DNA of 32,629 bases from Synechococcus sp. TMED19 (GTDB lineage Bacteria; Cyanobacteriota; Cyanobacteriia; PCC-6307; Cyanobiaceae). Both the position numbers and the translations under genes were made by a program. Each line of letters starts with the position of its first letter. Position 1 is the first letter of the stretch. Location of the stretch: contig NHBY01000040.1 in NCBI GenBank assembly GCA_002168155.1, positions 10,847 to 43,475 on the forward strand, written 5' to 3'. The notes under the pieces are model-generated. The model did not search any database. It saw nothing but the letters and a program-made list of their open reading frames with translations, and was not told the DNA's origin. This document shows positions 24,655-32,629 of the stretch, piece after piece.

Positions 24655-25836
24655 CTAGCGCACGACGGCCAGAGCAGCCCCCAGACCGGCACGAACGTCT
24701 TCGGGGTGCAGCTTGCCGTCGTGGTCGGAATCGAGCGCATCAAATACCGCATCACTACCCAGCCACTCTTCGCGGCAGATGCAGCCATCACCATCGAGGT
24801 CGTTGAGCAGGAAGATTTCCTGGGCAGCGTGGGCGAAGGCGGCACCGCCTTCCAGCACCGCCATGCGGTGGGCCAGCTGGGCCTCAAGGGTTTCAATCGC
24901 TTTGGTGAAGCCTTGAATGCCTTCCGCGAGCTTCTCGTGGGCCATCTGGTCTTCGCCCATCATCTGCTCGAAACGGGCGGCGTCGATGTTGAGCTTTTCA
25001 AGATTGCTGCTGGGATTCGCAGCATCGAGCTTGCGTGCCAGGGTGCCCTCCTGGTTTCGCAGCTGATCGAGCAGTTTCGGAGAGATGGTTAGCAGGTCGC
25101 AACCGGCTAGCTCGACGATCTCGTCGACGTTGCGGAAGCTGGCTCCCATCACCTCGGTCTTGTAGCCGTGGGTCTTGAAGTAGTTGAAGATCTTGCTGAC
25201 AGAGACCACGCCTGGGTCTTCGGGGCCGGGGTAGCTGTCACGACCGGTGCTCTTTTTGTACCAGTCGAGGATGCGACCGACGAAGGGAGAGATCAGCGTT
25301 ACACCAGCCTCGGCGCAGGCGGCGGCCTGGGCGAACCCGAATAGCAGGGTCAGGTTGCAGTGAATGCCTGATTTCTCAAGCTCCTCAGCCGCTTTGATGC
25401 CCTCCCAAGTGGAGGCGATCTTGATCAGCACGCGGTCGTTGCTGATGCCGGCGTCGTTGTAAAGGCCAATGAGTTTGTGGGCCTTGGCGATGGTGGCCTC
25501 GGTGTCATAGCTGAGCCTGGCGTCCACCTCAGTGGAGACACGGCCAGGGACGATCTTGAGGATTTCCTTGCCGAAGTTGACGCAGATCTCATCGAGGGCT
25601 TCGGTCACGACCTGCTCTGCAGGTGCTGTGGGACCGATTAGCTCGCGGGAGGCCCGAAGGGTCTCATCGATCAGGTTCTGATAAGCGGGAATCTGTGCTG
25701 CCGCCAGGATCAAGGAAGGATTGGTTGTGGCGTCGCGCGGAGTGAATTTCTCAATTGCCTGGAGATCGCCGGTGTCGGCTACCACCACGGTCATGCTGGA
25801 CAGCTGCTCAAGCAAGGTCGCCACGGCATCAGGCAT
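24655..25836 (-). CDS. tal: transaldolase with C-terminal EF hands
   Basis: The protein of the non-oxidative pentose phosphate pathway moves a dihydroxyacetone unit between sugar phosphates. Residues 1-330 are a TalB-type transaldolase: [19 protein letters not shown], Schiff-base Lys139 in [13 protein letters not shown], and [20 protein letters not shown]. The C-terminal 60 residues carry two EF-hand loops, [12 protein letters not shown] (346-357, canonical) and [12 protein letters not shown] (369-380, Asp at position 12 instead of Glu). EF-hand extensions are known in some cyanobacterial transaldolases and suggest calcium binding; the effect on activity is unknown. It is convergent with the esterase gene, 8 bases apart. 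Confidence 0.95.
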
Positions 25837-29683: not shown

Positions 29684-31012
29684 TTGGCCACGAGGATTTT
29701 GCTGGTGCGGCACGGTCTCAGCAGCTTCAATCAGGAAGGGCGCATTCAGGGCCGTGAAGATGCCTCCCAGCTCAGTGATGCCGGCGTGGAACAAGCCCAG
29801 CGCCTAGGGGATGCACTGAAAGATGTACCGCTTACTGCAGCCTTCTGCTCACCGTTGCAGCGAGCTCACAAGACCGCTGAACTGCTACTGGCTCGACAGG
29901 GAAGCGATGTAACCCTCACCAGCACCGAGCAGCTGCTGGAGATCGATCTTTCCTGCTGGAGCGGTCTTCTTCGTGGCGAGGTGGCCAGGCTTCACCCTGA
30001 TGAGGATCGTCTCTGGCGAACAGCCCCCGCCGAGCTTCAGTTGCAGCGCGCTGATGGCAGCAGTTACTACCCGGTGCAGGAACTGTTGGTGCAGGCCAAG
30101 GCCTTCTGGCAAGAACTGCAGCAGCGCTTTCCTCCTGAGGGGGATCACAGTGTTTTGGTGGTGGCACACAACGGAATCCTGCGTTGCCTTCTGCTGGCGG
30201 CTCTGGACTTGCCGGCAAGTCATTTCAACCGCTACCGCATCAACAACGCTTCCCTCTCGGTCTTGAACCTCAAGAGCGGCGGTCAGGTTCAGATTGAATC
30301 GCTCAACACCATCGCTCATCTGGGCGAGAGCCTCCCCTCGCGCAAGAGCGGTCCGCGGGTGTTGCTGGTGCGCCATGGAGAAACGAATTGGAATAAGGAG
30401 GGTCGTTTTCAGGGCCAGATCGATATCCCTCTCAATGACCGCGGCTGGGCACAGGCGGAAGCCGCCGGCAACTTCCTCAGTGACGTGGCCGTTGACCGTG
30501 CGTTCGCCAGCTCCCTCACCCGCCCCCACCAGACAGCCGAGGCGATCTTGAAGCAGCAGGCTGCTGATCTTCCGATCACCAGCTGTCCGGGTTTGGTGGA
30601 GATTGGTCATGGCGCCTGGGAAGGCTGCCTTGAACAGGAGATCCGTGATGGTTGGCCTGAACTTCTGGCGGCCTGGCAGACGGAGCCCCACACCGTTGAG
30701 ATGCCTGGAGAAGGCGGAGAGACGATCCAGCAGGTCTGGGACCGATCAGTGGTTGCTTGGCAGGAGATCATTCATTCCCTTAAAGACGGTGAGACTGCAC
30801 TGGTGGTGGCTCACGATGCGGTCAATAAAACGATCCTCTGCCACCTGCTTGGCCTCGGTCCACAGGACATTTGGGCGGTCAAGCAGGGCAATGGTGGTGT
30901 GAGTGTTATTGATTACGCCCCAGGAGGAGACGCTCAGCATGTGGTCGCCAGTCTCAACTTGACTGGCCACCTGGGAGGGGTGCTGGATCGCACGGCGGCT
31001 GGCGCCCTGTGA
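29684..31012 (+). CDS. tandem histidine phosphatase (two PGM-like domains)
   Basis: This 442-residue protein has two complete histidine-phosphatase domains. Domain 1 has ILLVRHGLSSFNQEGRIQGR (R-H-G), FCSPLQRAHKTAELLL and VLVVAHNGILRC. Domain 2 has VLLVRHGETNWNKEGRFQGQ, FASSLTRPHQTAEAI and ALVVAHDAVNKTIL. Both catalytic His pairs are present. Tandem proteins of this type are found in cyanobacteria and plants, where some are linked to inhibitory pentulose bisphosphate or carboxyarabinitol phosphate removal for Rubisco; here the substrate is unassigned. The start is TTG, the first possible after an in-frame stop. Its TGA overlaps the GTG of the dihydroorotase-like gene. Confidence 0.85.
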   Translation: MATRILLVRHGLSSFNQEGRIQGREDASQLSDAGVEQAQRLGDALKDVPLTAAFCSPLQRAHKTAELLLARQGSDVTLTSTEQLLEIDLSCWSGLLRGEVARLHPDEDRLWRTAPAELQLQRADGSSYYPVQELLVQAKAFWQELQQRFPPEGDHSVLVVAHNGILRCLLLAALDLPASHFNRYRINNASLSVLNLKSGGQVQIESLNTIAHLGESLPSRKSGPRVLLVRHGETNWNKEGRFQGQIDIPLNDRGWAQAEAAGNFLSDVAVDRAFASSLTRPHQTAEAILKQQAADLPITSCPGLVEIGHGAWEGCLEQEIRDGWPELLAAWQTEPHTVEMPGEGGETIQQVWDRSVVAWQEIIHSLKDGETALVVAHDAVNKTILCHLLGLGPQDIWAVKQGNGGVSVIDYAPGGDAQHVVASLNLTGHLGGVLDRTAAGAL

Positions 31013-32253
31013 AACGGCTGCTGAAGAACCTCCAATTGCTGCAGGGTCCAGGGGCAACCATTCAGCGTGGTGATGCGCTCTTTGACGGTGATCAGTTGAT
31101 CGCCTTTGGCTCTGAGGTCTCTGCCGCTGCTGATGCCGCAACTGTCTTGGATGTACCTCCCAGAACGTTGCTGGCTCCTTTGCTCGTTGATCCCCATAGT
31201 CATTTGGAGGATCCTGAAACCGGTTGCGCCGAGACTCTCAGCAGCCTGAGCCGTGAGGCGATTGCCGCTGGCTACGGCACCGTGGCTCTGTTGCCGAAGG
31301 CAGCCTCCTGGCGTGATCGTCCGGAACGTCTCAACCTGTTTCCCATTGAAGGGCTGGAGGTGCGGCTCTGGGGGGCGGTCACCCGTGCTGGTGATGGAAT
31401 TGAGCTGGCTCCCTTGGGTGATCAGCTCAATTGCGGTGCTATCGGCCTCAGTGATGGCGAGGCCATGCCGCCACTGCCGTTGCTAGAGCGATTGCTGCTG
31501 TTGGGGGAAGCCGATGCAGCCCCGCTGCTGATCGCGCCAAGGGATCCGGCTCTGACTCAGGCGGGTCTGGTACGAGAGGGGGTCGACACCCTGCGGCTGG
31601 GCTGGCCTCCCGATCCGGTGAATAGTGAGCTGTTGCCGCTTCACACCCTGCTGGCCCTCGCGCCGAGAGCCCCTCAGCTGCGTCTGATGAACCTCTCCAC
31701 TGCGGCGGGGCTCGCCTTGCTCGCTGCGGCTCCAGAGCCACCGCCAGCGAGCGTCAGCTGGTGGCATCTGCTGGTCGATCACAGCAGCCTTGATCCTTTT
31801 GCGGATGGATGGGTGGTGCTGCCCAGTCTCGGGAGCAGTGTTGATCGCGCTGCACTGCGCCAAGGGCTGCGTGATGGACATTTGCAGGCCATTGCGGTGC
31901 ACCACAGCCCTTTGGATCATGAGGAGCATCTACTGCCACTGGACCAGCGTCCTGCGGGGGTGGCGGGATATCAGGCGGTCCTGCCGGCCCTTTGGCATGA
32001 GCTCGTTGATGGTGACGGCTGGCGCCCTGAAGAGCTCTGGCAGGCTCTGAGCTGGGGGGGATCGACCTTCCTGGACCTCGAGCCGGAACGGTTGCAAACC
32101 GGTAGCCGCCGTTGGCTGCTGTTTGATCCCGACGCCATGCATCAGCCGCGTGAAGCCAGTCTTGCGGCTAACCGCCCACTTACACGAGTTCCCCTCAGGG
32201 GGCAGGTGCTGGCGACGGGGTTGCTGGAACCTCGATTGTGGGATCTGGACTGA
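31009..32253 (+). CDS. dihydroorotase-like amidohydrolase, probably inactive
   Basis: The 414-residue protein follows the dihydroorotase layout: LLAPLLVDPHSHLEDPETG at the H-x-H metal motif, CGAIGLSDGEAMPPLPLL at the A-F-S-D-D-G-like segment, LMNLSTAAGLALL where H-I-S-T is usual, and AIAVHHSPLDHEEH where S-D-H-A-P-H is usual. Expected ligand His (N in NLST) and the catalytic Asp (H in HHSP) appear changed, and the Arg after H-x-H-L is Glu. It may therefore be a PyrX-type non-catalytic dihydroorotase rather than PyrC. The GTG start overlaps the phosphatase stop. The 3' end overlaps lepB by 59 bases. Confidence 0.75.
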   Translation: MKRLLKNLQLLQGPGATIQRGDALFDGDQLIAFGSEVSAAADAATVLDVPPRTLLAPLLVDPHSHLEDPETGCAETLSSLSREAIAAGYGTVALLPKAASWRDRPERLNLFPIEGLEVRLWGAVTRAGDGIELAPLGDQLNCGAIGLSDGEAMPPLPLLERLLLLGEADAAPLLIAPRDPALTQAGLVREGVDTLRLGWPPDPVNSELLPLHTLLALAPRAPQLRLMNLSTAAGLALLAAAPEPPPASVSWWHLLVDHSSLDPFADGWVVLPSLGSSVDRAALRQGLRDGHLQAIAVHHSPLDHEEHLLPLDQRPAGVAGYQAVLPALWHELVDGDGWRPEELWQALSWGGSTFLDLEPERLQTGSRRWLLFDPDAMHQPREASLAANRPLTRVPLRGQVLATGLLEPRLWDLD

Positions 32254-32629
32254 CCAGTGAGCCCGCGCTGGCTAGAGGCCAGAAGCGGAACAGCGCACGG
32301 CCGATGATCTGGTTATCAGGTAAGAAGTGGGTGCCTGGCCAGAAACGGCCATCCCAGCTGTTGGCTCGGTTATCACCAAGCACCAGCACCGATTTGGGTG
32401 GAACCACAGCGCGTAAGGGCTGGCAGCCCTTGCCTTCTTCACTGGCGCAGAACCGGTTCACATAGGGCTCATCGACCGCCTTGCCGTTGATGCTCAGCCG
32501 GCCGTTGGGGTCCACCACGACCTTGTCGCCTGGAATGGCCACAACGCGTTTGATGAAGGCTTCACAGGAGGGTTCCTGGAGTCCTGGGAGACCACCGATG
32601 AAGGGAAGGTTGACCACAAAGCAGCGAAG
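32195..32629 (-). CDS. lepB: signal peptidase I, C-terminal part (gene runs past window)
   Basis: This is the C-terminal portion of the membrane-bound protease that removes signal peptides. CEAFIKRVVAIPGDKVVVDP contains the general-base Lys, and LVLGDNRANSWDGRFWPGTH then LPDNQIIGRALFRFWPL are the conserved G-D-N-x-x-x-S-x-D-S-R-like region and box E. The catalytic Ser and the N-terminal membrane anchor lie beyond the window edge; the frame is open to the last base, so the track start (GTG 32617) is artificial. After the family's usual end there is a Pro/Ala-rich tail (TPSPAPAP) that overlaps the convergent dihydroorotase-like gene. Confidence 0.9.
   Translation of the reverse strand, partial: LRCFVVNLPFIGGLPGLQEPSCEAFIKRVVAIPGDKVVVDPNGRLSINGKAVDEPYVNRFCASEEGKGCQPLRAVVPPKSVLVLGDNRANSWDGRFWPGTHFLPDNQIIGRALFRFWPLASAGSLVSPDPTIEVPATPSPAPAP

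What the first reader, a model, noticed from the sequence alone, without database searches (positions are those of the whole stretch)
31009..32253. Dihydroorotase homologue with apparently lost metal ligands, coupled to a phosphatase
The H-x-H motif is kept, but the later His (NLST), the catalytic Asp (HHSP) and the substrate Arg (HSHLEDP) appear replaced. This fits a PyrX-like pseudoenzyme or a new amidohydrolase specificity. It is translationally coupled to a tandem histidine phosphatase, an odd partner for pyrimidine synthesis.
Basis: partly seen in the sequence, partly recalled or inferred. Interest (0 to 1): 0.5.

Follow-up and report, generated by a model that had tools for sequence, protein, structure and literature searches.

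The report
Cyanobacterial dead dihydroorotase, probable ATCase partner
A gene that databases call an enzyme of pyrimidine (DNA/RNA building-block) synthesis has lost most of its working parts in essentially all oxygenic cyanobacteria sampled, yet is kept by selection, most likely as a non-catalytic partner of the preceding enzyme, while a separate intact gene does the chemistry.

Summary
Window 31009-32253 (+) encodes a 414-aa type I dihydroorotase (DHO) homologue. Aligned to Aquifex DHO, it keeps His63, His65 and Asp149, but the beta-site histidines (Ala176, Asn228), the catalytic Asp (His298) and the substrate residues (Glu67, Lys97, Leu302) are replaced. Replacement is family-wide: none of 33 picocyanobacterial (window's family) or 37 other cyanobacterial relatives has an intact site, while 10 of 10 Vampirovibrionia-like relatives do. 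HxH itself is intact in only 7 of the 33. The same genome carries an intact type II PyrC and a pyrB. The gene is under purifying selection (dN/dS 0.12-0.22) and is predicted to fold as a DHO. The best reading is a pseudo-DHO resembling Pseudomonas PyrX, an assembly or regulatory partner of aspartate transcarbamoylase (ATCase); binding to PyrB is inferred, not shown. The phosphatase neighbour is conserved: it precedes this gene in at least nine cyanobacterial families. One streamlined lineage deleted the pseudo-DHO cleanly but kept phosphatase, pyrB and pyrC, and its PyrB evolved unusually fast (rank 2 of 81 genes). That hints at a PyrB link, but also shows the subunit is dispensable there. NCBI's PRK07369 label 'dihydroorotase' is probably wrong for the whole family.

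The parts
31009..32253 (+). pseudo-dihydroorotase (cyanobacterial pDHO; PRK07369-like), 414 aa, GTG start
31195..31209 (+). H63-S-H65-L-E67: HxH kept in this clade, substrate Arg replaced by Glu
31297..31299 (+). K97 in place of substrate Asn (Aquifex N95)
31453..31455 (+). D149, equivalent of Aquifex D153 (first-site ligand), kept; one residue missing next to it
31534..31536 (+). A176 in place of metal ligand His (Aquifex H180)
31690..31692 (+).
31900..31914 (+).
29684..31012 (+). tandem histidine phosphatase, 442 aa, two His_Phos_1 domains, each with RHG and a second His; overlaps the pDHO start by 4 bases
32195..32629 (-). lepB (signal peptidase I), convergent, 3' end overlaps the pDHO 3' end; conserved neighbour, presumably unrelated in function

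Best explanation
The gene encodes a catalytically dead type I dihydroorotase (pseudo-DHO). Shown computationally: loss of active-site residues, DHO-like predicted fold, purifying selection, and a separate intact type II PyrC in the genome. Inferred: it works as DHO subunits do in class A ATCases. Dimers of it bridge or stabilise PyrB trimers in a dodecamer-like complex and so assemble or regulate aspartate transcarbamoylase, the step before dihydroorotase, as PyrX does in Pseudomonas. Its co-expression with the tandem histidine phosphatase would then reflect an old cyanobacterial gene pair. I put about 0.9 on 'no dihydroorotase activity' and about 0.5 on 'ATCase partner'; the stated confidence is for the latter.
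For: Residues: 6 of 9 key positions replaced; 10/10 Vampirovibrionia-like relatives are intact, and in several of these the DHO abuts pyrB (e.g. G238, G231, G281, G302, G291). Other active enzyme: intact TIGR00856 PyrC at G000:C35; all 37 Cyanobiaceae genomes sampled have one, while most other cyanobacteria use PRK07575. The pDHO is therefore kept whichever catalyst is used. Co-occurrence: 103/103 same-class genomes have both pDHO and pyrB, by my count of the listings. Gene order: in several families the pDHO lies near the PRK07575 DHO (L125, L130, L131; coordinates). Selection: dN/dS 0.12-0.22. Fold: TM 0.83-0.87 to type I DHOs, including ATCase-bound Aquifex DHO 3d6n. Coevolution hint: in the lineage that deleted pDHO, 11 of 160 otherwise invariant PyrB sites changed, rank 2 of 81 genes, beta-binomial p 0.035. 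Precedent: PMC7053772.
Against: pyrB is not adjacent (it is on another contig). The pDHO-less lineage keeps pyrB and pyrC, so this ATCase can work without it there. PyrC-II is also somewhat raised in the rate test (5 against 1 changed sites), so the signal may be pathway-wide. No interaction evidence was available. The constant neighbour is a phosphatase, not a pyrimidine gene.
Confidence: 0.5

Rival explanations
1. A pseudoenzyme whose partner is not ATCase: it binds a ligand or protein and regulates or scaffolds the tandem histidine phosphatase encoded with it, or another enzyme.
For: The phosphatase lies directly upstream on the same strand in nearly all Cyanobiaceae loci and in at least 8 other families; translational overlap in the window; no pyrB was seen next to the pDHO in oxygenic cyanobacteria (coordinates).
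Against: The phosphatase is retained intact in the 16 g18 genomes that lack the pDHO, with no outstanding change on that branch (4/177). Some cyanobacteria have no phosphatase next to the pDHO.
Confidence: 0.2
2. An amidohydrolase of altered specificity that works with a single metal held by H63, H65, D149 and perhaps H298.
For: In the window's own clade HxH and D149 are kept and H298 could be a further ligand. Aquifex DHO remains active with H180A/H232A (PMC3880350), so loss of the second site alone does not kill a type I DHO.
Against: The catalytic Asp is gone, and the putative ligands are not conserved among close relatives: position 63 is H in 7 of 33, position 153 is D in 12 of 33, position 305 is H, N or Q.
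Confidence: 0.12
3. A functional dihydroorotase, as annotated (PRK07369).
For: The database name; overall homology.
Against: Catalytic Asp, substrate Arg and Asn and both second-site His are replaced; intact PyrC elsewhere; scores far below the curated cut-offs (247 against 456; 125 against 279).
Confidence: 0.03
4. A decaying relic without function.
For: Very long branch leading to the Cyanobiaceae (1.89 changes per site); lost in one streamlined lineage.
Against: dN/dS 0.12-0.22; the frame is open in nearly all relatives matched; 27 invariant columns across 43 sequences.
Confidence: 0.05

Closest known systems
PyrX / PyrC' pseudo-DHO of Pseudomonas class A2 ATCase (PMC7053772)
   Same: Type I DHO homologue of similar size (about 45 kDa) lacking zinc ligands and substrate residues; active DHOase encoded elsewhere; pyrB present.
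   Different: Not next to pyrB; different gene neighbour (histidine phosphatase); complex with PyrB not shown; absent from one lineage that keeps pyrB. Alphaproteobacterial relatives examined here lost a different set of residues.
Aquifex aeolicus type I DHO of the DHO-ATCase dodecamer (3d6n, class A1)
   Same: Predicted fold (TM 0.87); H61, H63 and D153 equivalents kept in the window.
   Different: Lacks H180, H232, D305, R65, N95 and H309 equivalents.
Pseudo-DHO domain of fungal Ura2 (CAD-like protein)
   Same: Dead DHO kept inside an ATCase-containing assembly (PMC7053772, PMC4581275).
   Different: There it is a domain of one polypeptide; here it is a separate protein.
NCBIfam PRK07369 (NF005614) 'dihydroorotase'
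   Same: Best-matching curated family; most other cyanobacterial orthologues exceed its cut-off.
   Different: The window scores 247 against a cut-off of 456; the function in the name is probably wrong for the family.

Membership tests
Active type I dihydroorotase | HxH first-site motif | tested here: met
   H63-S-H65; not conserved in relatives
Active type I dihydroorotase | First-site Asp (Aquifex D153) | tested here: met
   D149, with a one-residue gap next to it
Active type I dihydroorotase | Second-site His180 and His232 | tested here: not met
   A176, N228
Active type I dihydroorotase | Catalytic Asp305 | tested here: not met
   H298
Active type I dihydroorotase | Substrate Arg65 and Asn95 | tested here: not met
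   E67, K97
NCBIfam PRK07369 / TIGR00857 | Score above curated cut-off | tested here: not met
   247.2 against 456 and 125.3 against 279.05
PyrX-type pseudo-DHO of class A2 ATCase | Type I DHO fold and length | tested here: met
PyrX-type pseudo-DHO of class A2 ATCase | Metal and substrate residues lost | tested here: met
   (partly: HxH and one Asp kept in the window)
PyrX-type pseudo-DHO of class A2 ATCase | Separate intact DHOase and pyrB in the genome | tested here: met
PyrX-type pseudo-DHO of class A2 ATCase | Gene next to pyrB | tested here: not met
   pyrB lies on another contig; neighbours are the histidine phosphatase and lepB
PyrX-type pseudo-DHO of class A2 ATCase | Stoichiometric complex with PyrB; needed for ATCase activity | not testable with these tools
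   A lineage without it keeps pyrB
PyrX-type pseudo-DHO of class A2 ATCase | Common descent with proteobacterial pDHO | tested here: inconclusive
   Two alphaproteobacterial pDHOs are sister to the cyanobacterial clade (95/87), but a Vampirovibrionia + cyanobacteria clade is not rejected (AU p 0.10)

The most novel reading that the evidence does not exclude
A pan-cyanobacterial non-catalytic DHO, arisen from the ATCase-linked active enzyme of the common ancestor, was recruited together with a tandem histidine phosphatase into a regulatory assembly linking pyrimidine synthesis to phosphate or carbon metabolism. One streamlined lineage escaped it by deleting the subunit and adapting its PyrB.
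Probability: 0.15. Interest if true: 0.65.

Novelty: new variant of a known kind. Interest (0 to 1): 0.42.

Why it matters
If the protein is inactive, the 'dihydroorotase' label on this family is wrong across cyanobacteria, and metabolic models that assign the reaction to it are misled. If it binds PyrB, ATCase of cyanobacteria belongs to the little-studied class A2 and a further lineage of pseudo-DHO assemblies becomes known. The picocyanobacterial lineage that deleted the gene offers a natural comparison of an enzyme with and without its pseudoenzyme partner.

Tried and rejected
Intact ligands at shifted positions: not found in the multiple alignment. Sole DHOase of the genome: rejected, intact type II PyrC present. 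Phosphatase as a chance neighbour: rejected by conservation across families. Divergent pDHO missed in g18: rejected, the space between phosphatase and lepB is about 60 bases in the genomes inspected. Placing cyanobacterial pDHO firmly with Vampirovibrionia or with proteobacterial PyrX: unresolved. PyrB rate test: with 51 controls, one outlier gene set aside, p was 0.001; with 80 controls and that gene kept, p was 0.035; I rely on the latter. Literature: no paper on a cyanobacterial pDHO found in the open-access library, which is not complete.

Full report
What is there. ORF 31009..32253 (+) starts with GTG inside the stop of a tandem histidine phosphatase (29684..31012, overlap GTGA). Its best curated family is PRK07369 'dihydroorotase' (247 bits, cut-off 456), followed by TIGR00857 (125 bits, cut-off 279); Pfam gives nothing. 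The genome is a marine Synechococcus-like assembly: a 91%-identical copy lies in a MAG so named.

Active site. Against Aquifex DHO, whose ligands are given in PMC3880350, the window keeps H63, H65 and D149 and replaces H180 by A176, H232 by N228, D305 by H298, R65 by E67, N95 by K97 and H309 by L302. In 33 Cyanobiaceae (the window's family) the second His of HxH is present in only 7, position 232 is always Asn and 305 is His, Asn or Gln. In 37 other cyanobacteria the first His is always Tyr, 65 is Gly or Ser, 180 is mostly Trp, 232 is Arg in 36, while D305 is kept in 36. In 10 Vampirovibrionia-like relatives all nine positions are intact. Because Aquifex H180A/H232A stays active, the decisive losses in the window are the catalytic Asp and the substrate residues. 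The assignment of R65, N95 and H309 as substrate or second-shell residues rests on my knowledge of type I DHO structures.

Fold and selection. The AF2 model from 43 cyanobacterial sequences has pLDDT 90.7 and pTM 0.92; the best solved matches are type I DHOs (TM 0.83-0.87). dN/dS against relatives is 0.12-0.22, about twice that of the neighbouring phosphatase but clearly purifying.

Who does the chemistry. The genome has an intact type II PyrC (TIGR00856, 420 bits; catalytic residues visible in the translation) and a pyrB. In a 291-genome phylum sample, all 37 Cyanobiaceae have TIGR00856, and most other oxygenic cyanobacteria have PRK07575 instead. In some that have TIGR00856, PRK07575 is broken or in fragments (G237, G290, G323, G111). 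The pDHO is in all 103 same-class genomes and in 26 of 37 Cyanobiaceae, whichever catalyst is used; pyrB is in all of these. These counts are mine from the printed listings.

Neighbours. The tandem phosphatase lies upstream on the same strand in nearly all Cyanobiaceae loci and in at least 8 other families, and lepB follows convergently in many. In some genomes PRK07575 sits just beyond (L125, L130). In Vampirovibrionia-like genomes the intact DHO often abuts pyrB. The closest solved structure to the phosphatase is phosphoserine phosphatase 1 (4ij5).

A natural deletion. pyrB was found over cut-off in 22 of the 23. I asked whether PyrB changed on that branch. At sites invariant in pDHO-plus and outgroup genomes, all three minus genomes tested differ at 11 of 160 in PyrB, against a pooled 1.4% in 80 control genes: rank 2 of 81, beta-binomial p 0.035. 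The phosphatase shows 4/177 and PyrC-II 5/154. This is suggestive, not decisive.

Origin. The cyanobacterial pDHOs form one clade (100/100) with a very long stem to the Cyanobiaceae (1.89). Two alphaproteobacterial pDHOs are placed as sister (95/87), but long branches and similar losses could cause that; a Vampirovibrionia-cyanobacteria clade is not rejected (AU p 0.10).

Interpretation. Pseudomonas ATCase needs an inactive DHO to assemble (PMC7053772). The present protein fits that mould in fold, residue loss and genomic context, but not in adjacency to pyrB, and a complex is unshown. I therefore say it probably works like PyrX and do not file it as PyrX.

Noticed in passing
32195-32253: The 3' ends of the pDHO and of lepB (convergent) overlap by about 59 bases; a similar overlap is seen in same-genus relatives (L013, L014).
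   Followed up: partly
L125:5957-7315, L130:5785-7371, L131:707-2065: A second DHO of the PRK07575 kind (QxH in place of HxH, most other key residues intact) lies close to the pDHO in several cyanobacterial families; in some genomes with type II PyrC it is broken (G237, G290, G323, G111).
   Followed up: partly
24655-25836: Transaldolase with a C-terminal EF-hand pair (PRK12309), a known fusion.
   Followed up: no
G177, G284: Two near-complete cyanobacterial genomes show neither TIGR00856 nor an over-cut-off PRK07575; which protein is their dihydroorotase is open.
   Followed up: no
G256:C1:239479-240462: A gene whose form in the pDHO-minus genomes differs at 40 of 132 otherwise invariant sites; probably a replaced or paralogous copy.
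   Followed up: no
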